Assembly (NCBI GenBank): GCA_001657395.1
Contig: LYSY01000002.1
Coordinates: forward strand, 124,001 to 188,000
DNA: 64,000 bases
Direction of reading: 5' to 3'
Source: Rhodospirillales bacterium BBD 1991-14
GTDB taxonomy: Bacteria; Pseudomonadota; Alphaproteobacteria; Kiloniellales; Kiloniellaceae
The notes below the pieces were generated by a model that saw only the letters and a list, made by a program, of their open reading frames with translations, did not search any database and was not told the DNA's origin. Shown one piece after another: positions 1,508-38,681 of this stretch. Positions within the stretch are counted from its first letter, which is position 1; each line of letters begins with the position of its first letter. The translations under genes and the position numbers were made by a program.

Positions 1508-2755
1508 TCAGAGACCACCCCACTCGATCCGGAAGTGTTCCGGAAACGGGCCGCCGGCGAAGTCGATCTGGCCGCCGGGCCCGGCCTTGCGCCGCAGTCC
1601 GGGCTTCAGGACGACCTGGCGAACGGCTTCGGGAATGGCAACGTTCCCGAGGTGGCCGCCGAGACAGGCATGATGGCCAAAACCAAAATGCATGTAGGAA
1701 GACGCCGGCCGATCGCCCTTGAAGTCGTCAGGGTCTGGCATCAGGTCAGGATCGAACATCGCCGAACCTGTACAGGCGGCGACGAGCGTCCCGGCCTTGA
1801 CTGTCTGCGCATAGGGCGTGCCCGTGCCGATCTCGCGGTCGACTTCTGCGAAGCGAAACTGAATTGTGGTGATCGGATTGAATCGCAAGGCCTCGAAAAC
1901 GATGCCGTCGAAGCGCGCGATATCGTTTGCCTGCGCAGCGGCGCGCGCCTCTTCCAGACGCGACGGAACTCCGAGCAGCTGATCCACAGCCTGGACGATT
2001 GCCTGGCTCATTGTCTCGATTGTCCCAACGAGCAGGCCGCAAACGTTGCTCACGACACGGTCTGGCGCAAAAGCTGCTGCAGGCTCCCGGCTCAGGTTGA
2101 TGATGCGGCTTACCACATCGGACTCCTCGAGCGGTGCGGCCGCCCACTTTTCGGCGAGAAACGGCCAGAGCCAGGCGCGCATCTCCTCGCCTGCATCAAC
2201 GCATTTGCGGACGATGTCTGGGTCTCCGGACAGATTGCGAAACATGGCGTGTTGAGTCGCAAACGACCAAGCCAGAAGCCTATCGTCAGGAGCGGCAAAT
2301 CCGAAGTAATCCTGTACGATCCTGAGGGGTACGTGACGGCCAATCAAAGGCACGAGATCGGCTTCGCCCGTCTCGCCCTGTAATGGTTCCGCTGCGACAT
2401 CGCCCGCAAGAGCGCGCACCTTCGGGATGTCGTCCCAACGCAGGACGGCCTGCATCAGGCCCTTTTCATGCCAATTGACCTCGGTCTGGTCTCGCGCCAG
2501 CATGAACGGGCCGACCGACGGGTCCATGCTCACGCTGTTGGGGCGTACCGAGTACAGGCGTGGCTGGGACAAGACATCCAAAACATCCGTCGCTCGCGTC
2601 ACCATGGTGAAGATCGGTGCGTCGAATACCGCTCTGTTTGCCCGCAGATCCTCATACATCGCGCGCCAGTCGCCGCGCAGGTACTCAACGATATGGGCGA
2701 TACGCATTTGCGGCTGATCGGCCGGTATCGCGTCGTATTCCTCAAGAAAAGCCAA
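1508..2755 (-). CDS. Cytochrome P450
   Basis: Haem monooxygenase of 415 residues, a normal length for a soluble bacterial class I P450. The haem loop is FGFGHHACLG, with the cysteine ligand at residue 364. The K-helix ExxR is EALR, and the I-helix carries GTIETM in place of the usual AGxDTT. The start is TTG at 2755, chosen because GGAG sits six bases upstream and no ATG fits. No ferredoxin or reductase partner lies beside it, so the electron donor must be elsewhere. The substrate cannot be told from sequence. It sits between intact acnA and a relic of an acnA 3' end, which suggests it arrived by insertion or with a duplication. Confidence 0.93.
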   Translation of the reverse strand: MAFLEEYDAIPADQPQMRIAHIVEYLRGDWRAMYEDLRANRAVFDAPIFTMVTRATDVLDVLSQPRLYSVRPNSVSMDPSVGPFMLARDQTEVNWHEKGLMQAVLRWDDIPKVRALAGDVAAEPLQGETGEADLVPLIGRHVPLRIVQDYFGFAAPDDRLLAWSFATQHAMFRNLSGDPDIVRKCVDAGEEMRAWLWPFLAEKWAAAPLEESDVVSRIINLSREPAAAFAPDRVVSNVCGLLVGTIETMSQAIVQAVDQLLGVPSRLEEARAAAQANDIARFDGIVFEALRFNPITTIQFRFAEVDREIGTGTPYAQTVKAGTLVAACTGSAMFDPDLMPDPDDFKGDRPASSYMHFGFGHHACLGGHLGNVAIPEAVRQVVLKPGLRRKAGPGGQIDFAGGPFPEHFRIEWGGL

Positions 2756-2907
2756 CGTCTACTCCAAAGCTGATGGTCGCGGCGACTCGTCTGGCTGTTG
2801 AAAACGCCCGTGCCCGCACACGGAGGGCACGATCATAGAGTGAGTGGCGCACGATTCTGCGCCCTCTTTGGAGGCATGCAGCGCTCTTATTCGCTGGTGT
2901 CCCGATC

Positions 2908-3030
2908 GGCCCGCGGGTTGACGCCTGGTGGCCCCGGCACTGCCCCACCGATAGCGCAGGCGCGGTGGAGTGCAACAGGAGCCACGGCATCCTGCGCTAC
3001 GTGCTCAGGAACCCCATGATGGCGGCGTGA
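2908..3030 (+). pseudogene. Degraded duplicate of the aconitase 3' end
   Basis: Reading 2947-3030 in frame gives TDSAGAVE-CNRSHGILR-YVLRNPMMAA and a stop. This aligns without gaps to the intact aconitase end, IDTADEVE-YYKNGGILH-YVLRNLMKAA. Just upstream, PRVDA matches PRMDL of the parent, but with about 45 bases lost between the two blocks. There is no start codon or usable upstream frame, so it is a relic. The intact parent ends at 1214, and the P450 lies between the two copies. Confidence 0.8.
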
Positions 3031-3039
3031 CGTCCCGGG

Positions 3040-3903
3040 TCAGCCAGCAGCGCCAAGCGGTCCGGCGAAACGCGCGCGCAGGGACTCGACGGAAGACTGC
3101 GTCTTCGCCACCAGAAGATTGCCCTCCGTCAGGCGGCAGTCGTACGGGCCGCCGTCGATCAGTTCGGCGCGGCCACCGGCCTCCTGCACCGCGAGCACGC
3201 CGGCGGCATGGTCCCAGGCGTTCAGTTGGGCATTGACGATGAAGTCGGCGCGGCCCTGGGCGAGCAGCCGGTACTCGTGGCAGGAGCAGCGCAGGGAGGG
3301 CGCTCGGCGGAAGCCGGTCATGGCCTCGGCGATGGCGCGCCTGCGCTCGCGCGGGAAGGTGAAGAGCGGGACGAAGCCGGTCATCTCCGCCGGCGCAACG
3401 GCGGTCCCGACCGAAAGCCGGAGAGGTTCCTCCTCCGGCCGGCAGAACCAGGCGCCGCCGCCCTTGCGGGCCAGCACCCAGTCGTCGAGGAGGGGGTCGT
3501 AGAGCAGGCCGAAGACCGTCTCGCCTTCCACCGCCACGGCCATAATCACACCGAAGATCGCGAGGCCGTTGGCGAAGTTCCAGGTGCCGTCGATGGGATC
3601 GAGGATCACGGCCAGACCGCTGCCGATCCCGCTCAGCAAGGAGGGATCAGCCGAGACCGCCTCCTCCCCGATGACCGTCGCCGCCGGCAGGATCTCCCGA
3701 ACGCCCGCCGTGATGGCGGCCTCGGCGGCCAGGTCAGCCTCGGTGACGAGATCGTCGGGCGCGGTCTTGGCACGGATATCGTCCGTGGCCAGGCGGCGGA
3801 AGCGCGGCAGGATCTCCGCCTTCGCCACCTCCCGCACCAGGGCGATCAGAGCGTCCTCCTGCCGGCGCGTCAGAGCCGAAGAGTCACTGGCCAGCGCATC
3901 CAT
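3040..3903 (-). CDS. Inositol monophosphatase family phosphatase
   Basis: Mg2+-dependent phosphatase of 287 residues from the IMPase/FBPase/HisN superfamily. Metal-binding signatures are visible: IGEEA, then DPIDGTWNF (the DPxDGTxN motif) and, near the C-terminus, NAWDHAAG (WDxAAG). Substrate could be inositol phosphate, histidinol phosphate or another sugar phosphate; the sequence alone does not decide. The frame is open to 3981, but the ATG at 3903 is preferred because GGAGAG lies at a suitable distance and the family N-terminus begins about there. The stop lies ten bases past the aconitase relic. It appears to be transcribed alone. Confidence 0.9.
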   Translation of the reverse strand: MDALASDSSALTRRQEDALIALVREVAKAEILPRFRRLATDDIRAKTAPDDLVTEADLAAEAAITAGVREILPAATVIGEEAVSADPSLLSGIGSGLAVILDPIDGTWNFANGLAIFGVIMAVAVEGETVFGLLYDPLLDDWVLARKGGGAWFCRPEEEPLRLSVGTAVAPAEMTGFVPLFTFPRERRRAIAEAMTGFRRAPSLRCSCHEYRLLAQGRADFIVNAQLNAWDHAAGVLAVQEAGGRAELIDGGPYDCRLTEGNLLVAKTQSSVESLRARFAGPLGAAG

Positions 3904-29670: not shown

Positions 29671-31083
29671 TCAGACCGGCGAGCCGCCGCGCGCTTTCAG
29701 GTTGGCGAGGAACTCGCGCCGGGTCTTCGGGCCGAAGGTGAGGAAGTGCGGGTCGGGTTGCTCCCGGTAGGCGGCGCGGCGGCGCTGCACCCGGTCGTCG
29801 CGGGCGCGCTGCAGCACCTCCTCCACATCGATGCTATAGGGCCGCGCGGCGTTGAGGCCGAAGATCTTGGCGCGCAGGCGCTCGGTAATCTTCGGGTAGC
29901 CGTGGCGTTCCTGCAATTCTTCCGAGATCTGGAAGCTGCGCAGCGCCTGGATCTGATCCTGCGGCGAGCCGTACCAGATGCAGTCGGAGCCATAGAGCAC
30001 GTTGTCTTCGCCGATGTGCTTCACCAGCTTGCCGACGATATGGGCGGCGCTGTCGGGATCGCGCATGGCAAAGCGCCAGGTGCTGCCCAGCTCGGCATAG
30101 ACGTTGGCGTTCAATCCGATGCCGTTGTCCTCCACCGAGCGGATCAGCGCGTCCACGCCCTCGCCACGCGCAGGGTCGTAGGGTCCTTCCTTCTGCCCGC
30201 TGATGAAGCCGGAGTGATAGACGAGGAAGTTCACGTCCGGATACATCCGCGCGACGATGCCGACGTCGCTGGCGATGGAGTGCTCGTAGGACTGACGCCC
30301 GAAGGGCAGGCCCTTGTGGATGCAGATGTTCTTTACGCCCAGGGCACGCGCCTTTTCGATCATCGCCAGGCCCTGGTCTTCGTGCAGGAAGAAACCGCGC
30401 CCGTCCGGTCCCCACTGGGTGTAGCACTTCCAGGCCACCACGCCCCAGGTCTCCGCCAGTTCGTCCATGCCCTCCAGGTCGCCCGGCTGGTTGGGATTGG
30501 CGCGGCCGTGAATCAGCAGGCGCTTGGTGCCGTCCATCTGATCGATGATGCGCCGGGTCTCGTCCGCCTCCTGGATGGTCAGCAGCTCCCGTTCCCTGCG
30601 CGAGGGAATGAAGGACAGCACCATCATGTCGGTGTCGGAATCGAGGAAGATGTCCTTGATGAACTGCTCGGAGTTGCCCAGGCCGGTGCGGCCGATTCCG
30701 TTGGCGCCGACGAAGTGGCCCTGAACGTCGAAGACGAACTCCCGGCCCTCCAGGCGGTCGGCCGCGACTTCCGGGTCCAGCGCCGCCGTCTGGTCCAGCT
30801 CGAAGAAGCCGCCGCTCCGTCCGGCCTCCGCATTGGCGGAATTGAAGGCCAGCAGCGTGCTGGCGGCCCCGCAGGAAGAAACCATGAAGGAGCGGCGCGA
30901 GACGCCGCGGCGCCTGGCGTTTTCGCCCGCCCGCTCCACCGCCAGGCGGTTGGCGCGGCGGTTCACCGCATCCAGGGGGACCGGCACGAACTCGCCGTTG
31001 GAGGTGGAGTCCAGCTTGATCGGCAGGCGCGTGCCGTCCGGGTCCTCAAGGAGTTTCGTGAACGGGTCGCTCTTTCGCGGCAT
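29671..31083 (-). CDS. Tat-exported amidohydrolase-family (TIM-barrel) protein
   Basis: A 470-residue protein with a twin-arginine signal set unusually far in: RRRGVSRRSFMVSS near residue 60, then a hydrophobic stretch ending FNSANAEA. The exported part has the amidohydrolase_2 pattern: FVFDVQGHFVG, ICIHKGLPFG, FLVYHSGF and VLYGSDCIWYGSP with the late Asp. It is probably a periplasmic metal-dependent hydrolase or decarboxylase. GGGAGG precedes the ATG at 31083. The roughly 60-residue leader before the Tat motif is conserved in type, not a frameshift. Confidence 0.88.
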   Translation of the reverse strand: MPRKSDPFTKLLEDPDGTRLPIKLDSTSNGEFVPVPLDAVNRRANRLAVERAGENARRRGVSRRSFMVSSCGAASTLLAFNSANAEAGRSGGFFELDQTAALDPEVAADRLEGREFVFDVQGHFVGANGIGRTGLGNSEQFIKDIFLDSDTDMMVLSFIPSRRERELLTIQEADETRRIIDQMDGTKRLLIHGRANPNQPGDLEGMDELAETWGVVAWKCYTQWGPDGRGFFLHEDQGLAMIEKARALGVKNICIHKGLPFGRQSYEHSIASDVGIVARMYPDVNFLVYHSGFISGQKEGPYDPARGEGVDALIRSVEDNGIGLNANVYAELGSTWRFAMRDPDSAAHIVGKLVKHIGEDNVLYGSDCIWYGSPQDQIQALRSFQISEELQERHGYPKITERLRAKIFGLNAARPYSIDVEEVLQRARDDRVQRRRAAYREQPDPHFLTFGPKTRREFLANLKARGGSPV

Positions 31084-31177
31084 CGGGGCCTCCCTGGATC
31101 GCGGGTGAGCGCGGCAGCCGGCGCGCCTTTCTTCACATGGCTTCACCCGGCAGCGAAGTTAAGGACGCAGGGTTGTC

Positions 31178-31684
31178 CTATTCGGCCGGCAGCGAACCCT
31201 CCTCGGCAAGCGCCCGCCCGAGCTCAGCGATCTGGTGTTCGGCAAAGACGCAGATGCCCTGCGCCTCCAGAAGCGCGGTGACGACACCCTGGCCGTCCAC
31301 CCTGTTGCCGCCGAAGGTCCCGTCATAGATGAAGGTCGCGCCGCAGGAGGGGCTGCCGTCGGTCAGCAGTGCATAGCGGCAGCCGGCCTCCCGCGCCGTT
31401 GCCAGCGCTGCCTCGGCCCCGGCGCGAAAGGCCGCCGTCACATCGCCGCCGGTGGAGTCCAAGATGCGGGCCCTGCCGGCCAGCACCGCGGCACCGCCGG
31501 CGCCCGCTTCGATCTCCGCCGGCAGGCGCGGCGTGGGCAAGCCGGCCATCACCTCCGGACAGACCGGCACCAGCCGGCCCTCCGCCTGCCAGGCCGCCAG
31601 CAGCGCGTCGTCCAGGCGCTTGCTGCCGCCGTCGTAGCGCACCGGGCGGCCGAGCAGGCAGGCGCTGACCAGGATCTTCTGCAT
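31178..31684 (-). CDS. DUF523 (YbbK-like) protein
   Basis: A 168-residue protein beginning ILVSACLLGRPVRYDGGSKR, the DUF523 signature. PVCPEVMAGLPTPRLPAEI, LLTDGSPSCG and VFAEHQIAEL follow. The function of the family is unknown. Conserved Cys residues (SACLLG, VCPE, PSCG) suggest metal or Fe-S binding. It is divergent from the ynb operon, so both may see the palindromes at 31767-31813. No close ribosome site is visible. Confidence 0.9.
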   Translation of the reverse strand: MQKILVSACLLGRPVRYDGGSKRLDDALLAAWQAEGRLVPVCPEVMAGLPTPRLPAEIEAGAGGAAVLAGRARILDSTGGDVTAAFRAGAEAALATAREAGCRYALLTDGSPSCGATFIYDGTFGGNRVDGQGVVTALLEAQGICVFAEHQIAELGRALAEEGSLPAE

Positions 31685-31766
31685 CGCTCTGGCTTAGCCG
31701 CATTCGCCGCGAATTGCATCGCCAAAGCGCCGGCGGCCGGGCACAGGCGCCATCGCAGAAAAATAT

Positions 31767-31825
31767 TGAACATCGTTCATTCATTCCCATATGCCATAAT
31801 TGAACACTGTTCATTTTACTGAACA
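31767..31825. promoter_or_regulatory. Two 13-bp palindromes before the ynb operon, TetR-type operators
   Basis: TGAACATCGTTCA (31767-31779) and TGAACACTGTTCA (31801-31813) are both TGAAC-N3-GTTCA palindromes, centred 34 bp apart. A further half-site TGAACA is at 31820-31825. A -10-like CATAAT (31795-31800) lies between them. The symmetry and size fit a TetR-family repressor. No TetR gene is in the window. Confidence 0.7.
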
Positions 31826-31838
31826 GCAGGGGATGACC

Positions 31839-32471
31839 ATGACGCTCTATGCCCTCAAGCCGCGGTTTCAGGCGCTTCTGCGGCCCCTGACCGCGCGGCT
31901 GGCCGGCGCCGGCATCACCGCCAACCAGATCACCCTGGCGGCTGCGCTGGGATCGCTGGTGACCGGCGCCCTGGTGGGCGGCACGGTCGCCTTCGCACCG
32001 GGGGCGCAGGAGGTCTTTCTGCTGATCCCGCTGTGGCTGGCGCTGCGCATGGCCATGAACGCCCTCGACGGCATGCTGGCGCGGGAGTTCGGACAGCGGA
32101 CGCCGCTGGGCGCCTATCTGAACGAGCTGGCCGATGTGATTTCCGACGCGGGCCTGATCCTGCCCTTCGCGCTGCTGGCGCCCTTCGAACCGCTGGCTGT
32201 CGCAGCGGTCGTTTTCCTGGCCGTGCTGAGCGAGTTCGCCGGCGCGCTCGGGCCCCTGGTGGGGGCGGCACGCCGCTACGAAGGTCCGCTGGGCAAAAGC
32301 GACCGGGCGCTGGTTTTCGGCGCGCTCGGCCTCGCTGCCGCCCTGCTGCCGGCGCTGCCGCCCTGGCTGGGCTGGCTGATGCCCGCCCTGGCGCTGCTGC
32401 TCTGCCTGACGGTGGTCCGCCGCGTGCGTGCCGGCCTTGCCGAACTGCACGAGCGCGGCAACGACCGATGA
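31839..32471 (+). CDS. ynbA: CDP-alcohol phosphatidyltransferase, YnbA type
   Basis: A 210-residue membrane enzyme that would transfer a phosphatidyl group from CDP-diacylglycerol to an unknown alcohol. MTLYALKPRFQALLRPLT matches the E. coli YnbA N-terminus. The active-site block is NALDGMLAREFGQRTPLG, then LNELADVISD. Two positions of the general family signature that are usually Asp are Asn here; from memory E. coli YnbA has the same change, so it is a subfamily mark. The ATG at 31839 has AGGGG six bases upstream. Several membrane helices follow. First gene of a four-gene operon. Confidence 0.88.
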   Translation: MTLYALKPRFQALLRPLTARLAGAGITANQITLAAALGSLVTGALVGGTVAFAPGAQEVFLLIPLWLALRMAMNALDGMLAREFGQRTPLGAYLNELADVISDAGLILPFALLAPFEPLAVAAVVFLAVLSEFAGALGPLVGAARRYEGPLGKSDRALVFGALGLAAALLPALPPWLGWLMPALALLLCLTVVRRVRAGLAELHERGNDR

Positions 32472-32518
32472 CCTCCACAAGCCCTTCGCCCATCCGTCGA
32501 ACCGAAAGGGAGTCCGGC

Positions 32519-34306
32519 ATGACCGAGAGACCGACCGAGAAGCGGACCTTCGTCACCGAGGACGGCACCGCGCTGTGCTACCGCCACTGGCCGGCGCAAG
32601 CGGAGCGCCGCGGCGCCCTTGTGCTGCTGCACCGCGGCCATGAGCACTCCGGCCGCATGGTGCACCTTGCCGAGGCGTTCGACCTGCCGGCATTTTCGAT
32701 CTTCGCCTGGGATGCGCGCGGCCATGGAGAGTCCCCGGGGCGGCGCGGTTACAGCCCGAGCGCAACCACCGCCATCCGCGACCTGCACGGTTTCATCGCG
32801 CACCTGACCGAGACCCACGGGATTGCGGTCGAGGACATCGTCATCGTCGGCCAAAGCATCGGCGCCACCCTCGCCGCGGCCTGGGTGCACGACTATGCCC
32901 CGCCGATCCGCGCCATGGTGCTCGCCGCTCCGGCCTTCGAGGTGAAGCTCTATGTTCCCTTTGCCCTGACCGGCCTGCGCCTGGCGCACAAACTGCGGGG
33001 AGACTTCTTCGTGAACAGCTACGTAAAGGCGCGGCTGTTGACCCATGATACTGCGCGGATCGACAGCTACGAGCGCGACCCCCTGATCTCACGCGCGATC
33101 TCGGTCGGCCTGTTGCTGGGGCTGCACGACCTCGGCGCCCGCGTGGTCAGGGATGCAGCCGCTATCACGGTGCCGACCCAGGTTCTGATCTCCGGCGCCG
33201 ACTGGGTGGTGCGCAGGAAACCGCAGCAGCGTTTCTTTGAGCGCCTGGGTACAATGCGCAAGGAAGCCCACGTCCTCGACGGCTTCTTCCACGACACATT
33301 TGGCGAGCGGGACAGGAGCATCGCCATCGACAAGGCGCGGCGCTTCATCCTCGGCTGCTTCGACGTCCCGCCCCGCCAACCCTGCCTGCTCGACGCCGAC
33401 CGGCGCGGGGCCTTCAAGAAGGAAGCGGACCGCCTGGCCCGCCCTTTCCCGGCTCTTTCCCTGCGCGGCCTTTACTGGGGCGCCGTGCGCCTGGGCCTGC
33501 GGGCCGGCGCCGCGCTGTCGGAGGGAGTGAGGATCGGGCGCGAGACCGGCTTCGATTCCGGCAGCATGCTGGACTACGTCTATCGCAACCGGCCGCAGGG
33601 CTGCGGGCCGCTGGGCCGGCTCATCGACCGCCGCTATCTCGATGCCATCGGCTGGAAAGGCATCCGCCAGCGCAAGAGCAACCTCAAGGCGCTGCTGTCC
33701 ACGGCGATGGAACGCAGCCGCCAGGACGGCCTGCCGCTGCACGTGCTGGACATCGCCGCCGGCCACGGCCGCTACGTGCTGGAGGCCATCGAAGGCGCCG
33801 ACGTGCGCCCGGAAAGCGTTCTGCTGCGCGACTACAGCGACCGCAACGTGGCGGAGGGGACTGCGCTGATCGCACAGAAGGGCCTGGACGGAATCGCCGC
33901 CTTCGAGCAGGGCGATGCCTTCGACCGGGAGAAGCTGGCACGGGTTGCGCCGCGGCCCAGCGTCGCCGTGGTCTCCGGGCTCTACGAGCTGTTTCCCGAG
34001 AACCATCTGGTGCGCCGTTCGCTCGATGGCCTTGCGGCGGCGCTGCGCCCGGGCGGCTACCTCGTCTACACCAACCAGCCCTGGCACCCGCAGCTGGAGT
34101 TCATCGCCCGCGCCCTCACCAGCCACCGCCAGGGCCGCGCCTGGGTCATGCGCCGCCGCAGCCAGGCGGAGATGGACCAGCTTGTCGCCGCGGCGGGATT
34201 CGAGAAAGTCGCCCAGCGGATCGACCCCTGGGGCATCTTCACGGTCTCCCTGGCGCGCAAGACGCCGGCTGCGTCTCTGGCGCGCCAGGCGTCGGCAGGC
34301 GCCTGA
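32519..34306 (+). CDS. ynbC: Bifunctional hydrolase/methyltransferase, YnbC type
   Basis: A 595-residue two-domain protein. The N-terminal half is an alpha/beta-hydrolase: LLHRGHEHSGRM, FAWDARGHG and VGQSIGATLAAAWVHDYAP (nucleophile Ser), with a late FFHDTFGERDR His. The C-terminal third is a SAM-dependent methyltransferase (HVLDIAAGHGRYVLEAIEG, LLRDYSDRN, GGYLVYTNQPWHPQLE). Length and order match E. coli YnbC. The ATG at 32519 has AAAGGGAG upstream; the frame is open for 480 bases before it but overlaps ynbA. It may modify a lipid head group. It is 14 bases before the acyltransferase gene. Confidence 0.9.
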   Translation: MTERPTEKRTFVTEDGTALCYRHWPAQAERRGALVLLHRGHEHSGRMVHLAEAFDLPAFSIFAWDARGHGESPGRRGYSPSATTAIRDLHGFIAHLTETHGIAVEDIVIVGQSIGATLAAAWVHDYAPPIRAMVLAAPAFEVKLYVPFALTGLRLAHKLRGDFFVNSYVKARLLTHDTARIDSYERDPLISRAISVGLLLGLHDLGARVVRDAAAITVPTQVLISGADWVVRRKPQQRFFERLGTMRKEAHVLDGFFHDTFGERDRSIAIDKARRFILGCFDVPPRQPCLLDADRRGAFKKEADRLARPFPALSLRGLYWGAVRLGLRAGAALSEGVRIGRETGFDSGSMLDYVYRNRPQGCGPLGRLIDRRYLDAIGWKGIRQRKSNLKALLSTAMERSRQDGLPLHVLDIAAGHGRYVLEAIEGADVRPESVLLRDYSDRNVAEGTALIAQKGLDGIAAFEQGDAFDREKLARVAPRPSVAVVSGLYELFPENHLVRRSLDGLAAALRPGGYLVYTNQPWHPQLEFIARALTSHRQGRAWVMRRRSQAEMDQLVAAAGFEKVAQRIDPWGIFTVSLARKTPAASLARQASAGA

Positions 34307-34320
34307 CGGAGGAGATCGCC

Positions 34321-34980
34321 ATGACGCGCTTTCTCAGGCCGCTCTGCGCGCGCCTCTCCGCACGGGCGATCGTGCTGTTTACCTGTCTGGTAACGGGAGT
34401 GCAGGCCCGCTGGACCGGCTGCGCGCCGCAAGCCACACAGCGCATCTACTTCGCCAACCATGCCAGCCATGGCGACTTCGTGCTGATCTGGACCGCGCTG
34501 CCGCAGGCGCTGCGCCGGACCGCTCGCCCGGTTGCCGGTGCCGACTACTGGCAGGCCGGGCGCCTGCGCCGCTTCATCGCGCGCGACGTTTTCGACGCCG
34601 TGTTGATCGACCGTGAGCGCCAGGCCTGCGGCCCCGACCCAATCGAGCCCATGGCCTGCGCGCTTGGCAACGGCCAGTCCCTGATCCTCTTTCCCGAGGG
34701 CACGCGCAACACCGGTGATGCGCCGCTGCTGCCTTTCAAGAGCGGGCTCTACCGCCTGGCGCGCCGCCACCCGAAGGTGGACCTGGTGCCGGTCTGGCTG
34801 GCCAACCTCAACCGCGTCCTGCCCAAGGGCGAGGTGCTGCCGGTGCCGCTGCTCTGCAGCGTCACCTTCGGCGCCCCCCTGAGACTGCTGGCGGAAGAAA
34901 GCAAGGAGGCTTTCCTGACCCGCGCGCAGGCCGCCCTGCGCGCCCTCACGCCTGCTGCAACCGAAGGGGCGCCGTCATGA
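34321..34980 (+). CDS. Lysophospholipid acyltransferase family protein (PlsC-like)
   Basis: A 219-residue membrane-associated acyltransferase. Catalytic block I is FANHASHGDFVLIW (NHxxxxD form NHASHGD), and block III is ILFPEGTRNT. It is expected to acylate lysophosphatidic acid or a related glycerolipid. GGAGGA precedes the ATG. Its last four bases overlap the start of the ynbB gene (ATGA). E. coli ynbABCD has no such gene, so this operon adds an acylation step. Confidence 0.9.
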   Translation: MTRFLRPLCARLSARAIVLFTCLVTGVQARWTGCAPQATQRIYFANHASHGDFVLIWTALPQALRRTARPVAGADYWQAGRLRRFIARDVFDAVLIDRERQACGPDPIEPMACALGNGQSLILFPEGTRNTGDAPLLPFKSGLYRLARRHPKVDLVPVWLANLNRVLPKGEVLPVPLLCSVTFGAPLRLLAEESKEAFLTRAQAALRALTPAATEGAPS

Positions 34981-35933
34981 CCGCAGACAGCCAGATCCTG
35001 CTGCTCTTCGGCGGCGTCGCCGCACTGCTCGTCGTGGCCACCTTGATCGCCCGGCTGCTGCGCCTGCGTCAGGCCGGCGGCGAAGCGCCTGCCCAGAGCT
35101 CCCCCGCGATCGAAAACCTGAATGCCCGCGTCGATGCCTGGTGGGCCATGGTGGCCTTTCTGGGCCTTGCCTTTTTCTTTGGCAGCACCGGCGTCATCGT
35201 GCTCTTCGCGCTGCTTTCGCTTGCCGCCCTCAGAGAGTTTCTCACCCTGACTCACACGCGGCGCGGCGACCACTGGGCCCTGCTGGCAACCTTCTTCCTG
35301 GCGCTGCCGGCACAGTACGGTCTGATCGCGATCGGCTGGTACGGTCTCTATGCGATCTTCATCCCGGTCTACGCCTTCCTGCTGGTGCCGGTCATCGCCG
35401 TCCTGCGCGGGGACACCCAGCGCTTTCTGGAGCGCATCAGCGAAACCCAATGGGGCCTGATGCTCTGCGTCTACTGCCTGTCGCACGTCCCTGCCCTGAC
35501 GACCCTGGAGATCGCAGGCTTCGAGGGACGCCAGTTGCTGCTGATCGCTTTTCTCGTGCTCGTCGTGCAGATGAGCGACGTGCTGCAGTACGTCTGGGGC
35601 AAGCTGATCGGACGGCGCCGAATCGCCCCCGAGGTTTCCCCCGGCAAGACCGTGGAAGGCATGGCCGGCGGCATCGCGAGCGCAACCCTGCTCGGTGCGG
35701 CGCTGTGGTGGATCACCCCCTTCCAGCCCTGGGAAGCGGCGGCACTCGCGTTTGCCGCCACGGCCATGGGCTTTGTCGGCGGCCTCGTGATGTCGGCCAT
35801 CAAGCGCGACCGCGGCGTGAAGGACTGGGGCTGGATGATCGAAGGCCACGGCGGCGTGCTCGACCGGCTCGACTCCCTGGTCTTCGCCGCGCCGATCTTC
35901 TTTCACCTCGTGCGCTACTTCTGGTCCGGGTGA
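34977..35933 (+). CDS. ynbB: Phosphatidate cytidylyltransferase, YnbB type
   Basis: A 318-residue membrane protein with about eight helices that makes CDP-diacylglycerol from phosphatidate and CTP. The signature is complete: SAIKRDRGVKDWGW, then GHGGVLDRLDS. Upstream, YVWGKLIGRRRIAPEVSPGK is the typical cytosolic loop. It resembles E. coli YnbB and would supply the CDP-lipid that YnbA uses. Start codon overlaps the acyltransferase stop (ATGA). Its 3' end overlaps the convergent nucleotidyltransferase gene by 19 bases. No ynbD gene follows. Confidence 0.9.
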   Translation: MTADSQILLLFGGVAALLVVATLIARLLRLRQAGGEAPAQSSPAIENLNARVDAWWAMVAFLGLAFFFGSTGVIVLFALLSLAALREFLTLTHTRRGDHWALLATFFLALPAQYGLIAIGWYGLYAIFIPVYAFLLVPVIAVLRGDTQRFLERISETQWGLMLCVYCLSHVPALTTLEIAGFEGRQLLLIAFLVLVVQMSDVLQYVWGKLIGRRRIAPEVSPGKTVEGMAGGIASATLLGAALWWITPFQPWEAAALAFAATAMGFVGGLVMSAIKRDRGVKDWGWMIEGHGGVLDRLDSLVFAAPIFFHLVRYFWSG

Positions 35934-36433
35934 CCGCCCGCCTGCGGTACAAGCGATGCCGGGTCCCGCCAGCGCCAGGGCTCGATGGAGCGATAGGCCG
36001 CACGGAAGTGCCGGAGGTTTTCGGCCGACACACAGAGCAGCGGTCGACCGGCAAGAAGGCCGGTTTGCGACAACGGCGCAGACCATCGGAAGGGGCAGTC
36101 GCCCCAGAACTGGGTACAGACCCGGCTGCCCTCGTGCCGCACCAGGATCACTTCGACCAGAGTTTCGCCAAACAGAAAGGCACGTTTGTGGTGAAACCGC
36201 TTGCCGGACACTTCGCGAAAATCGCTCGTGGCCGCAAGCATCGCATCGACACGGCGAAACGAGTCCGCAGGGAGCAGAAGGTCGATGTCGCCATGGGCGC
36301 GCGGCGGGGACAGGCCGAGGGCTTCCTCGGCCCAGCCGCCGAACAGCAATGTGGGGGCGTCCGCCGCCACCAAGCGGTTGAGGACTTCGGTAACGGTCGC
36401 TTCGGTCACCGGCTCAGGTTTTGGTCCCCTCAT
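35915..36433 (-). CDS. Nucleotidyltransferase-fold protein (aminoglycoside-adenylyltransferase-like)
   Basis: A 172-residue protein. LLFGGWAEEALGLSPPRAHG followed by DIDLLLPADSF is the GG...HxDID nucleotidyltransferase pattern, with the two acidic metal ligands present. FHHKRAFLFGETLVEVILV adds the third strand. Related proteins adenylylate aminoglycosides or lincosamides, but no drug specificity can be claimed here. It converges on ynbB and overlaps its end. The N-terminus (MRGPKPEPVT) has no strong ribosome site. Confidence 0.8.
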   Translation of the reverse strand: MRGPKPEPVTEATVTEVLNRLVAADAPTLLFGGWAEEALGLSPPRAHGDIDLLLPADSFRRVDAMLAATSDFREVSGKRFHHKRAFLFGETLVEVILVRHEGSRVCTQFWGDCPFRWSAPLSQTGLLAGRPLLCVSAENLRHFRAAYRSIEPWRWRDPASLVPQAGGHPDQK

Positions 36434-36533: not shown

Positions 36534-37142
36534 TCAGCCGGCTGCGGCGACGCAGTAGCTTTCCGCGGAGTTGTCCTTCTTGCCGGCTTTTCCGCCTTCA
36601 TCGATCTGCATGTAGGGATCGATCTGGATGACGAAGCGGGCCATCCCGTTGTTCCAGGCGGAGTTGGGAATGGGAAAGCCGGCCAGATCCGCGGTCGGCC
36701 CGACCGGGAACGGGCCGAAGTCCTTCTCGACCGTCTTGGCGTAGGCCGGGGCATCGGTGAAGGTGACCCTGACCTTGAACATGCCGGCCGGCGCAGTGCC
36801 TTTGTTGACGACATGGACGGTGACGTACTTCGCGGCCCCGCCCCCCTGACTGCTGCCGCAGAAGCCGGAGTTCGGCGCCCCCGGCAGCGGTCCGTAAGGG
36901 TTCGGCAGCTTGAGTCGGAGGTTGGGGTAGTCGCCCTGATGCTGCCGGGCGCCGCCGCCTTGTTGGAGGCCGGGCCGCCGGTTGTCACCCTGCATAGAGC
37001 TGAGGCGCGGAGATCCGGCGTCGATCTTCACCCGGTCGAATGTCGTCTTCGCGCCGCCGGCAGCCGGGGCCGCATCGGAATAGGCCAGCAGTCCCATCGT
37101 GGCCACCGCCAAGCCCAGCATGCTTAACTTGCTGAACGTCAT
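36534..37142 (-). CDS. Exported tandem-family protein, copy 1
   Basis: A 202-residue protein with a signal peptide (MTFSKLSMLGLAVATMGLLA, then YSDAAPAAGG). The mature part has a disordered Gln/Gly-rich linker and then a beta domain: NSGFCG, YVTVHVVNKGTAPAGMFKV and DEGGK, ending SYCVAAAG. The two Cys could pair. The pattern suggests a CARDB-like adhesion/beta-sandwich fold, which is inference. It has two paralogs upstream in the same strand. Its leader (37143-37242) duplicates that of copy 2. Function unknown. Confidence 0.82.
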   Translation of the reverse strand: MTFSKLSMLGLAVATMGLLAYSDAAPAAGGAKTTFDRVKIDAGSPRLSSMQGDNRRPGLQQGGGARQHQGDYPNLRLKLPNPYGPLPGAPNSGFCGSSQGGGAAKYVTVHVVNKGTAPAGMFKVRVTFTDAPAYAKTVEKDFGPFPVGPTADLAGFPIPNSAWNNGMARFVIQIDPYMQIDEGGKAGKKDNSAESYCVAAAG

Positions 37143-37242
37143 TGTCTTTTCCTCTGTTTCACAGATCTGCTCCGCAGGGCGGTGAACCACGGAGCCGCGT
37201 TGTCCCCAATCATTGGGCGAACGCACTTAAGGAAAGGTTCAA
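37143..37242 (-). repeat. Duplicated leader, copy A
   Basis: About 100 bases upstream of copy 1 closely match 37830-37928 upstream of copy 2. Shared blocks on the plus strand include TTGTCTTTTCCTCT, AGATCTGCTCCGCAGGGCGG, ACCACGGAGCCGCG and GCACTTAAGGAAAGGTTCAA. It includes the ribosome site and probably the promoter. Confidence 0.85.
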
Positions 37243-37268
37243 AGGCCGAACCCAAACCCGCCCCGGCG

Positions 37269-37829
37269 TCAGCCGGCCGGGGCGACGCAGTAGCTGCTGA
37301 CGACGTTGTTCCTCTCGCCGCGGGCGCCGCCTTCTTCGACTTCATCCTTGGAGTCGAGCTGGATCTGGAAAGGCGCCATGCCGCTGCTCCAGGCATCCGC
37401 AGGGATCGGAAAGCCGGTCGACCAGGTTGCGGGGCCGGCAGCCATGGGGCCGTAGGAGGTCTCAAAGGTCTTGCCGGAAACGGTGAAAACCACCTTCACC
37501 CGGAACACCCCGGCCTCGGCGCTGCCGTCGTTACGGACCTTAACGAACACCGCCTTGGCGGCGCCCCCGCCATTGTTGGGGCCGCAGTGCCCCGATGACG
37601 GCGCGCCCTTGGGAACGCCGTTGGGGTAGGGCTGGAGATGAACCAGATCGGGAAGACGGGTTCCGCCCTGGCCGGCACCGGGTGTGGCCGCCTGCGCCTT
37701 GCCGGCGGTCGACTTGGTGCGCTCGAATTTCGTCTTCGCGCCGCCGGCTGCCGGAGCCGCATCGGAGTAGGCCAGCAGGCCTACCGTGGCCACCGCCAGG
37801 CCCAGCATGCTTAACGTGCTGAACTTCAT
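37269..37829 (-). CDS. Exported tandem-family protein, copy 2
   Basis: A 186-residue protein with a signal peptide nearly identical to copy 1 (MKFSTLSMLGLAVATVGLLA, then YSDAAPAAGG). The mature part reads TKFERTKS, LPDLVHLQPY, SSGHCGPNNGGGAAKAVFV, KVRNDGSAEAGVFRVKVVF, and ends SSYCVAPAG. It shares the two-Cys layout and the beta-domain core with its neighbours. A duplicated leader sits upstream (37830-37928). The role is unknown; export and repeated N-dG-A elements fit a surface or periplasmic binding module. Confidence 0.83.
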   Translation of the reverse strand: MKFSTLSMLGLAVATVGLLAYSDAAPAAGGAKTKFERTKSTAGKAQAATPGAGQGGTRLPDLVHLQPYPNGVPKGAPSSGHCGPNNGGGAAKAVFVKVRNDGSAEAGVFRVKVVFTVSGKTFETSYGPMAAGPATWSTGFPIPADAWSSGMAPFQIQLDSKDEVEEGGARGERNNVVSSYCVAPAG

Positions 37830-37928
37830 TGTCTTTTCCTCTTTTCTAGAGATCTGCTCCGCAGGGCGGTGGACCACGGAGCCGCGTGTTCTGGAGGATT
37901 AGACGAAGGCACTTAAGGAAAGGTTCAA
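37830..37928 (-). repeat. Duplicated leader, copy B
   Basis: Matches 37143-37242 over most of its length, with differences in the central 20 bases. It lies directly upstream of copy 2. The third family member (38070-38681) has an unrelated upstream sequence. Confidence 0.85.
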
Positions 37929-38069
37929 CGGAATGGTTCGCATTGCATGCGACTCGGGCGTCTGCAATTCAGCGGCTGCCGCAACGCGGATGGACAGCCT
38001 TGGGCGACCGGAGTGTGCCCGATCCGCCGCGCAGCACCCTTGGTCGCCCCTCGCGATTACACGCGTCTG

Positions 38070-38681
38070 TCAGGTCGCCTCGGCGACGCAATAGCCTTGC
38101 TTGCGGTTGTTTGATTCGCCCTTTCTCGACGGCGGGCCTTCGTAGACGTTGTTTGTGAAATCGATAATGATCTCGAACCGCGCCTTGCCGGCGACCCATG
38201 CTGCTGCGGGTATTTTCTTGGTTGACCCGCTGACCGTTGGCCCTTCCAGACCCGCCGAAGACATCTGAAGCTCCACACCGGCATCAGGGAAGATTATCTT
38301 GGTGTAAAAGCCTTCCGCAGCGGCCGTGCCGTCATTTCTGACCTTGATCACCACACTGTCGGATCGGCCGTCGCCATCGTTGTCGGGACCGCAGTTGCCG
38401 GACTTCGGGACACCGGTCGCGGGAACGCTCGCATAGGGCTGGACGTGGACAAGGTCGGCGTATCGGCCCACCGACGGCTTGTTCTGCGCGACCGTGGCGG
38501 GCGAGGCGGTCCGGGATTGACCGTTCCGCGCAGCGCGCTCTGCAGCTTGCGGTTCCATATTGGCGGTCGGCACGGAGCGCTCGAACCGCTCCTTGGCTTC
38601 CGTCGCTGCAGGAGCCGAAAGGGTTAAAGCCGCAGCGGACGCTGCAGCCAGGGCGAGGGCGGTTAAGCTATTGACCTTCAT
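38070..38681 (-). CDS. Exported tandem-family protein, copy 3
   Basis: A 203-residue diverged paralog. Signal peptide ends SAPAATEA. KERFERSVPT matches the KFERT block of copy 2. Then YADLVHVQPY, KSGNCGPDNDGDGRSDSVV, IKVRNDGTAAAEGFYTKIIF and GYCVAEAT follow the same order with the same two Cys. It has its own ribosome site, AGGAGA, just before the ATG. It lies 140 bases upstream of the duplicated leader of copy 2. It is likely the oldest copy, with copies 1 and 2 a later duplication. Confidence 0.83.
   Translation of the reverse strand: MKVNSLTALALAAASAAALTLSAPAATEAKERFERSVPTANMEPQAAERAARNGQSRTASPATVAQNKPSVGRYADLVHVQPYASVPATGVPKSGNCGPDNDGDGRSDSVVIKVRNDGTAAAEGFYTKIIFPDAGVELQMSSAGLEGPTVSGSTKKIPAAAWVAGKARFEIIIDFTNNVYEGPPSRKGESNNRKQGYCVAEAT

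What the first reader, a model, noticed from the sequence alone, without database searches (positions are those of the whole stretch)
31839..35933. ynbA-ynbC-plsC-ynbB lipid operon with an added acyltransferase
Four tightly packed genes encode a CDP-alcohol transferase (YnbA type), a hydrolase-methyltransferase (YnbC type), a lysophospholipid acyltransferase and a phosphatidate cytidylyltransferase (YnbB type). Together these could build phosphatidate, activate it with CTP, attach an unknown alcohol head group and modify it. The E. coli ynb genes have, to my knowledge, no defined product. Compared with E. coli, this operon gains a PlsC-like gene, changes gene order and lacks ynbD. The product lipid is a candidate for undescribed biology.
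Basis: partly seen in the sequence, partly recalled or inferred. Interest (0 to 1): 0.82.

Follow-up and report, generated by a model that had tools for sequence, protein, structure and literature searches.

The report
Uncharacterised ynb phospholipid-making gene cluster
Four packed genes look like a side pathway that builds and then edits an unknown membrane lipid; the cluster is widespread in bacteria, its key enzyme breaks a rule of its family, and here it may be switched together with the cell's lipid-repair machine.

Summary
Observation confirmed: ynbA, ynbC, a plsC-like gene and ynbB are packed at 31839-35933. The evolutionary reading is mostly reversed: of 100 surveyed ynbC loci (60 titled Pseudomonas), 94 have a plsC-like gene in or beside the cluster and 77 read A-C-D-x-plsC-B, so plsC was not gained here; E. 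coli is the odd one. ynbD is absent from the locus, and no DSPc match exists in the genome. Added findings: (1) YnbA has the PIP-synthase fold, but signature aspartates D1 and D3 (metal ligands) are Asn in 100 of 100 aligned rows and 8 further loci. (2) Twin TGAAC-N3-GTTCA palindromes precede ynbA; other exact sites in 5.5 Mb are a pair before an MFS-PlsC-Aas lysophospholipid acyltransferase, one before a TetR gene and one inside an ORF; one sister genome repeats the three promoters, but ynb loci of three other relatives lack the sites. (3) YnbA, YnbB and a plsC-like gene stay together in three relatives whose ynbC lies elsewhere. Best reading: a dedicated minor-phospholipid pathway linked to lysophospholipid stress. 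Product and reactions are untested.

The parts
31767..31779 (.). operator-like palindrome 1 (TGAAC-N3-GTTCA), distal
   Evidence: twin palindromes at the same place in L037 and L166; binding not shown
31801..31813 (.). operator-like palindrome 2 (TGAAC-N3-GTTCA), proximal, 34 bp after the first
   Evidence: binding not shown
31839..32471 (+). ynbA-type CDP-alcohol phosphatidyltransferase homologue, 210 aa; signature N74-x2-D77-G-x2-A-R-x8-G91-x3-N95-x3-D99
32519..34306 (+). ynbC-type fusion, 595 aa: monoglyceride-lipase-like hydrolase (S113, D228, H258) + class I SAM methyltransferase domain
34321..34980 (+). PlsC-like lysophospholipid acyltransferase, 219 aa, NHASHGD and FPEGTR motifs
34977..35933 (+). 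ynbB-type CDP-diacylglycerol synthase paralogue, 318 aa
31178..31684 (-). divergent neighbour, 2-thiouracil desulfurase-like (PF04463); not thought to belong to the operon

Best explanation
The operon encodes a dedicated, accessory side branch of glycerophospholipid synthesis. The PlsC-like protein acylates lysophosphatidate, or a related lyso-lipid, to phosphatidate; YnbB turns it into CDP-diacylglycerol; YnbA moves the phosphatidyl group to an acceptor that most likely carries a phosphate; YnbC then edits the product with its lipase-like and methyltransferase domains. Where ynbD exists, its phosphatase domains would remove the acceptor phosphate; here another phosphatase must do so, or the phosphate stays. 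In this genus a TetR-family regulator probably switches the operon together with an MFS-PlsC-Aas lysophospholipid acyltransferase, so the lipid is most likely made when lysophospholipids or acyl chains signal membrane damage. Shown by sequence: gene identity, packing, conservation, co-occurrence, active-site residues, repeated palindromes. Inferred: every reaction, the phosphorylated acceptor, binding of the TetR protein, the stress role. The acceptor alcohol and the methyl target are unknown.
For: Domain calls over Pfam cut-offs. Linkage: of 100 loci 98 hold ynbA, 96 ynbB, 94 plsC, 94 ynbD. YnbA, YnbB and a PlsC-like gene form a packed trio in G438, G439 and G444, whose ynbC lies elsewhere, and in G441, which has no ynbC. 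True YnbA (E <= 1e-74) was found in 6 of 6 chosen relatives with ynbC and 1 of 8 without. Acceptor phosphate: best curated matches are archaetidylinositol-phosphate and PIP synthases, below cut-off; best solved matches are mycobacterial PIP synthases; YnbA R156 (100 of 100) and R195 (96 of 96 rows without a gap there) align with the phosphate-binding arginines of PIP synthase (roles from PMC4634129, passages). E. coli YnbD passes the DSPc cut-off and matches PAP2 below cut-off; its CxxxxxR and PAP2 His/Asp residues are invariant in 100 of 100 rows. YnbC: lipase triad in 108 of 108 rows, monoglyceride-lipase fold. Regulation: six exact TGAACRNYGTTCA places in 5.5 Mb: two at ynbA, two at the Aas protein (NCBIfam NF005291, 1433.9 bits, cut-off 1349), one before a TetR gene, one inside an ORF; the reversed control pattern gave none. 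G451 repeats the three promoters; G447 and G452, which lack ynbC, keep the pair at Aas.
Against: No biochemistry, lipid or expression data. D1 and D3 of the signature are Asn, so YnbA may not catalyse the usual reaction. PIP-synthase residue R94 (always K/R, PMC6506517) is V/I/L/M in 100 of 100 YnbA rows, and the genome has no PF07994 inositol-phosphate synthase, so inositol phosphate is unlikely. L118 and L120 have A, C and D without B or plsC in the stretch, and L129 has only A and C. The plsC-like genes of the second arrangement are only 30-36% identical to the window's and do not group firmly with it, so the acyltransferase may have been recruited more than once. E. coli YnbB overproduction did not replace CdsA (PMC6362211), though a review says it makes CDP-DAG in vitro (PMC7018664). 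Operators: found at only 2 of 100 upstream regions (window, L037), plus L166; no exact site in the ynb stretches of G438, G439 and G444 although G438 and G444 have a TetR relative with a site; three of six genus sisters searched (G448, G449, G453) have no TTGAACRNYGTTCA site; in L037's genome no site lies at an Aas gene, and its one further site is near an enoyl-CoA hydratase, with the control pattern matching as often as half the sites. With two mismatches allowed, the window count (8) was reached by 4 of the shuffles.
Confidence: 0.5

Rival explanations
1. Lyso-lipid salvage: the cluster mainly recycles damaged lipids. The YnbC lipase domain clears monoacylglycerol or lysophospholipid, PlsC re-acylates lysophosphatidate, and YnbB returns it as CDP-DAG; YnbA makes an ordinary lipid from it.
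For: Monoglyceride-lipase fold and intact triad; palindromes shared with the MFS-PlsC-Aas protein.
Against: Does not explain the methyltransferase domain, the YnbD phosphatases, or a YnbA unlike PgsA/PssA. E. coli keeps ynbABCD without plsC; L129 keeps only A and C.
Confidence: 0.2
2. Pyrophosphate-linked glycolipid: YnbB supplies CDP-DAG for an MPIase-like lipid and YnbA joins the phosphatidyl group to a sugar phosphate or another phosphate nucleophile.
For: E. coli YnbB overproduction raises MPIase (PMC6362211). A phosphate nucleophile needs less activation, which would fit the loss of acidic residues at D1 and D3 (inference); phosphate-binding arginines kept.
Against: The catalytic-base position D4 is kept in 100 of 100 rows. 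The E. coli ynbB knockout has no significant MPIase change. No further gene recurs beside the cluster in more than 4 of 32 stretches clustered; the flanks were not annotated gene by gene.
Confidence: 0.12
3. YnbA is a non-catalytic CDP-alcohol transferase homologue that binds CDP-DAG as a partner or sensor for YnbB and YnbC.
For: Two of four metal ligands are replaced in every sequence examined.
Against: D2, D4 and the other signature residues, N29, T32 and R156 are invariant in 100 of 100 rows, and the protein is the most constant partner of YnbC (98 of 100), which is unusual for a dead enzyme.
Confidence: 0.12

Closest known systems
E. coli K-12 ynbA-ynbB-ynbC-ynbD (b1408-b1411)
   Same: Orthologous YnbA (48%), YnbC (53%), YnbB (38%); same Asn-for-Asp changes in YnbA
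   Different: E. coli has ynbD and no plsC, order A-B-C-D; in the tree its YnbB lies with the A-B-plsC arrangement, outside the window-type group (node 0.69)
Bacterial phosphatidylinositol-phosphate synthase (6h53/6h5a, 6wm5/6wmv, 5d91)
   Same: Fold (Foldseek probability 1.00, TM 0.66-0.73 on the query), signature spacing, phosphate-binding arginines
   Different: D1 and D3 are Asn; R94 position hydrophobic; about 20% identity; no inositol-phosphate synthase in the genome
LplT-Aas lysophospholipid recycling (NF005291 acyl-[ACP]--phospholipid O-acyltransferase)
   Same: Probably co-regulated in this genus; also holds a PlsC-type domain
   Different: A separate gene on another contig; LplT-Aas flips and re-acylates lysophospholipids and makes no new head group; the paper says that single-ORF fusions like this one are uncharacterised (PMC11416262, abstract and passages)
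MPIase pathway (CdsA/YnbB, E. coli)
   Same: YnbB family
   Different: No evidence for MPIase in this organism; YnbA and YnbC are not mentioned in PMC6362211 (0 occurrences)

Membership tests
CDP-alcohol phosphotransferase (canonical signature D1xxD2G..AR..GxxxD3xxxD4) | PF01066 score over cut-off and family fold | tested here: met
   32.9 vs 22 bits; AlphaFold2 model pLDDT 95; the 19 best Foldseek rows are CDP-APs
CDP-alcohol phosphotransferase (canonical signature D1xxD2G..AR..GxxxD3xxxD4) | All eight signature residues, called absolutely conserved in PMC4634129 (passages) | tested here: not met
   6 of 8 kept; D1 is N74 and D3 is N95 in 100 of 100 aligned rows and in 8 of 8 further loci. 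Filed as a homologue, not a canonical member
Phosphatidylinositol-phosphate synthase | Curated NCBIfam cut-off | tested here: not met
   NF045883 34.6 bits, cut-off 170; the archaeal NF040950 69.9 bits, cut-off 180
Phosphatidylinositol-phosphate synthase | Positively charged residue after D4 (Mt R94) | tested here: not met
   V100 here; V/I/L/M in 100 of 100 rows; rule from PMC6506517 (passages)
ynb gene cluster (YnbA, YnbC, YnbB types together) | Orthologues of YnbA, YnbB and YnbC in one operon | tested here: met
ynb gene cluster (YnbA, YnbC, YnbB types together) | Presence of ynbD (94 of 100 loci; common, not universal, so not defining) | tested here: not met
   None at the locus; no DSPc match at E <= 0.001 in the genome. 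The DSPc model is weak on some YnbD (26.6 bits for L046), so a diverged copy could be missed
CDP-diacylglycerol synthase (CdsA) | Cytidylyltransferase domain | tested here: met
   PF01148 216 bits
CDP-diacylglycerol synthase (CdsA) | Belongs to the housekeeping CdsA group | tested here: not met
   32 YnbB sequences form one group apart from two CdsA (0.97); NF008635 91.9 bits, cut-off 385
1-acylglycerol-3-phosphate acyltransferase (PlsC) | NHx4D and FPEGTR motifs | tested here: met
   N, H and D kept in 102 of 103 rows (the other row reads X); P, E, G and R in 103 of 103
1-acylglycerol-3-phosphate acyltransferase (PlsC) | Activity on lysophosphatidate | not testable with these tools
   TIGR00530 43.6 bits, below its 103-bit cut-off; 28% identity to E. 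coli PlsC over 153 columns
Monoglyceride lipase | Fold and Ser-Asp-His triad | tested here: met
   6eic and 3hju among the top hits; S113, D228, H258 in 108 of 108 rows. HRGHEH is invariant too; that this departs from the usual HG motif is recalled, so the substrate may differ

The most novel reading that the evidence does not exclude
YnbA founds a separate branch of CDP-alcohol transferases that works without the canonical four-aspartate two-metal site and transfers a phosphatidyl group to a phosphorylated acceptor to make a lipid class not yet described, which YnbC methylates and trims; the lipid is part of a conserved response to lysophospholipid damage in many Gram-negative bacteria, E. 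coli K-12 included.
Probability: 0.2. Interest if true: 0.85.

Novelty: new variant of a known kind. Interest (0 to 1): 0.55.

Why it matters
The ynb genes are an orphan pathway that even E. coli K-12 carries: lipid-chemistry genes for which the searches made here found no defined product. The survey says which genes belong to the set (A, C, usually plsC and B, usually D and a small membrane protein x), which residues to mutate (N74, N95, D99 in YnbA; S113 in YnbC), and, through the palindromes, when to look: when lysophospholipid recycling is switched on. If YnbA is active, a rule of a well-studied enzyme family has a natural exception.

Tried and rejected
Rejected: plsC as a local addition. 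Inositol lipid by the usual route: no PF07994 in the genome. Anti-phage system: PADLOC gave only a weak methyltransferase match of YnbC (mad2, 23.2 bits). A conserved extra partner gene: clustering of ORFs from 31 loci plus part of the window (22-46 kb) gave large clusters that sit inside the core genes, most on the opposite strand, which I read as shadow ORFs; outside the core the widest was one long gene in 4 stretches (L045, L053, L116, L122), then families in 3 (first 25 clusters printed). Promoter scan: no sigma-70-type site found in 31600-36200, so no promoter is claimed. The site at C1:1042899 lies inside an ORF that looks MarR-like by eye; the C6 site of G447 lies in a similar stretch; both treated as chance. 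Chance of operators: six simulated 5.5-Mb sequences (3rd-order Markov of the window) gave 0-3 sites and no pair within 40 bp; the genome has 6 places and two pairs. The model comes from the window alone.

The 20 unnamed loci are 20 of the 26 non-own positives; G146, G237, G286, G310, G344 and G393 were not fetched with flanks. For one search I dropped matches under 45 bits, except for x, and kept the best match per family and locus. L038 and L064 are short contigs, so their missing genes mean little. Weak nodes: 0.33, 0.69 and 0.69 in the YnbB tree, 0.195 in the PlsC tree (its lowest: it decides whether the two PlsC subtypes belong together); the support for E. coli YnbB's exact place was not printed. 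The MFS part of the Aas protein is called LplT by inference.
Full report
WHAT IS THERE. The window is G000:C15:124001-188000 of a 5.5-Mb genome. Four + strand genes run from 31839 to 35933: YnbA type (31839-32471), YnbC type (32519-34306), PlsC-like (34321-34980), YnbB type (34977-35933). Gaps are 47 and 14 bp, then a 4-bp overlap, so they are very probably one transcript (inference). Upstream, the divergent gene 31178-31684 is a 2-thiouracil desulfurase-like protein. The genome has six CDP-OH_P_transf matches and two CTP_transf_1 matches, YnbB and one other, so these two functions of the operon are extra to a housekeeping copy.

IS PLSC NEW? Not here. E. coli K-12 reads ynbA-ynbB-ynbC-ynbD. 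Orders: named, A-C-D-x-P-B 67, A-C-D-P-B 7, A-C-P-B 2, A-C-x-P-B 1, A-C-D-x-B 1, B-C 1, C-D 1 (the last two on short contigs); unnamed, A-C-D-x-P-B 10, A-C-D-P-B 5, A'-C-D 2, and A-C-P-B, A-C, B'-P'-A-C-D one each (a prime marks the opposite strand). P = PlsC-like; x = a small protein, of which one representative had no Pfam match. So a plsC-like gene is in or beside the cluster in 94 of 100. In the seven further loci of the same order the arrangements were D'-C 3, C-D-P'-B'-A' 2, C-P'-B'-A' 1 and A-C-P-B 1, and four genomes hold A-B-P as a separate packed trio: G438, G439, G444 with ynbC elsewhere, G441 without ynbC. This second arrangement has its own plsC-like gene, only 30-36% identical to the window's, and the tree does not settle whether the two plsC types are one lineage (0.195). 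In the YnbB tree E. coli lies with this second arrangement, outside the window-type group (0.69). The simplest reading is that E. coli's form descends from it and lost plsC (inference; separate recruitment of plsC is not excluded). The window's four-gene form without D is shared with L037, L097, L127 and L166.

DISTRIBUTION. In the same order 8 of 61 genomes have YnbC; in the own genus 2 of 8 (this one and G451). A search with the YnbA alignment found true YnbA (E <= 1e-74) in 6 of 6 chosen relatives with ynbC and in 1 of 8 without (G441). The pathway is accessory, and YnbA and YnbC come and go almost together.

YNBA. It passes PF01066; the nearest curated models are archaetidylinositol-phosphate and PIP synthases, both below cut-off. 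The model (pLDDT 95) matches mycobacterial PIP synthases best. The CDP-AP signature D1xxD2GxxAR...GxxxD3xxxD4 is described as eight absolutely conserved residues, D1-D3 holding metal and D4 the likely base; D4N nearly abolished activity of the mycobacterial enzyme (PMC4634129, passages; ligands of a two-metal site D1-D4 in PMC6506517, passages). In YnbA D1 is N74 and D3 is N95 in 100 of 100 aligned rows (98 loci, window, E. coli) and in eight further loci; D2 and D4 are kept. Four of the five other CDP-OH_P_transf proteins of this genome could be read by pattern (L001-L004) and have Asp at both; L005 could not. R156 and R195 align with the phosphate-binding arginines of PIP synthase (R156 in the 5d91 alignment; the 6h53 alignment is off by one there). 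The residue after D4, always K/R in PIP synthases, is V/I/L/M. I infer a phosphorylated acceptor that is not inositol phosphate.

YNBC. In the numbering (frame from 32510), residues 32-268 are a Hydrolase_4 domain of monoglyceride-lipase type and 277-584 Methyltransf_20. In the numbering from 32519, S113, D228, H258 and HRGHEH are invariant in 108 of 108 rows; so are A413, G415, G417 of the SAM motif, with D411 in 105. The model is moderate (pLDDT 79). Substrate and methyl target are unknown.

YNBD AND X. E. coli YnbD passes DSPc (96.6 bits, cut-off 33.5) and matches PAP2 below cut-off; L046's copy is below both cut-offs, yet the catalytic residues are invariant in 100 of 100 rows. E. coli ynbD did not complement strains that depend on PG-phosphate or C55-PP phosphatases (PMC7413402, passages). 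This genome has no DSPc match.

REGULATION. Two palindromes, TGAACATCGTTCA and TGAACACTGTTCA, lie 34 bp apart before ynbA (with two mismatches allowed the window holds 8 matches against a mean of 3.5 in shuffles, so the exact matches carry the argument). In the whole genome TGAACRNYGTTCA occurs at six places, control none: these two; a pair 30 bp apart before an 1144-aa MFS-PlsC-AMP-binding protein that passes the NCBIfam cut-off for acyl-[ACP]--phospholipid O-acyltransferase; one before a TetR gene on C9; one inside an ORF. That TetR is the genome's best match (E 5e-32, 36%) to the TetR divergent from ynbA in L037, where twin palindromes stand in the same place. In the genus, G451 repeats all three promoters (its Aas gene is cut by the contig end); G447 and G452, without ynbC, keep the pair at Aas, and G447 keeps the TetR site; G448, G449 and G453 gave no match to TTGAACRNYGTTCA; G450 was not searched. 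Simulations gave 0-3 sites and no pair. Against: the ynb stretches of G438, G439 and G444 hold no exact site, although G438 and G444 have a TetR relative beside a site; L037's genome has no site at an Aas gene, and its extra site near an enoyl-CoA hydratase may be chance, as the control pattern also matched there. Binding is not shown. LplT-Aas takes up and re-acylates lysophospholipids; fused single-ORF forms are called uncharacterised (PMC11416262, abstract and passages). A paper states that E. [quoted passage not shown] its source was not held), which would also be an envelope-stress link. A 2026 paper on lysophospholipid signalling in E. coli does not mention ynb (PMC13170283, passages).

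LITERATURE. Full-text searches of the held library for ynbA/B/C, ynbD with family names, and the family names together showed no paper that defines the product. In one search only 40 of 84 papers were listed, and most subscription papers are not held. Known: an old choline-phosphotransferase guess for YnbA was removed from EcoCyc (PMC3781023, passage); YnbB is linked to MPIase on overproduction (PMC6362211, passages; PMC7018664, passages); ynbB was not needed for phosphoglyceride-linked ECA (PMC8609368, passage).

VERDICT. A real, conserved, uncharacterised lipid operon, correctly spotted, with its evolutionary story mostly reversed. The most surprising features are the invariant Asn pair in YnbA and the palindromes shared with a lysophospholipid acyltransferase.

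Noticed in passing
L199:3069-3137 (G444): Three TGAAC-N3-GTTCA palindromes stand before a PspA/IM30-family gene (2349-3050, -) in a genome that also has ynbC, suggesting a wider membrane-stress regulon.
   Followed up: partly
L158:4401-5237 (own genome C9): A lyso-lipid acyltransferase-like gene (best NCBIfam hits OlsF and GlsA, below cut-off) lies convergent to the TetR gene that has the palindrome.
   Followed up: partly
L079:12052-12471 and matches in 79 of 100 loci: Small conserved, hydrophobic protein (gene x) between ynbD and plsC; the one copy scanned had no Pfam match; absent from the window.
   Followed up: partly
L135:7208-9361: A 717-aa apparently exported protein is inserted between ynbC and ynbD in one genome.
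   Followed up: no
window 36534-38681 (-): Three tandem, similar genes for proteins of about 200 aa that begin like secreted proteins (36534-37226, 37269-37877, 38070-38681, judged by eye).
   Followed up: no
window 29671-31146 (-): Amidohydrolase-family protein with a twin-arginine-like N-terminus (RRSFMVSS, judged by eye).
   Followed up: no
L130 and L118/L120: Rearranged clusters: B-P turned away from A-C-D in L130, A turned away from C-D in L118 and L120, hinting that A/B/P and C/D are two working units.
   Followed up: partly
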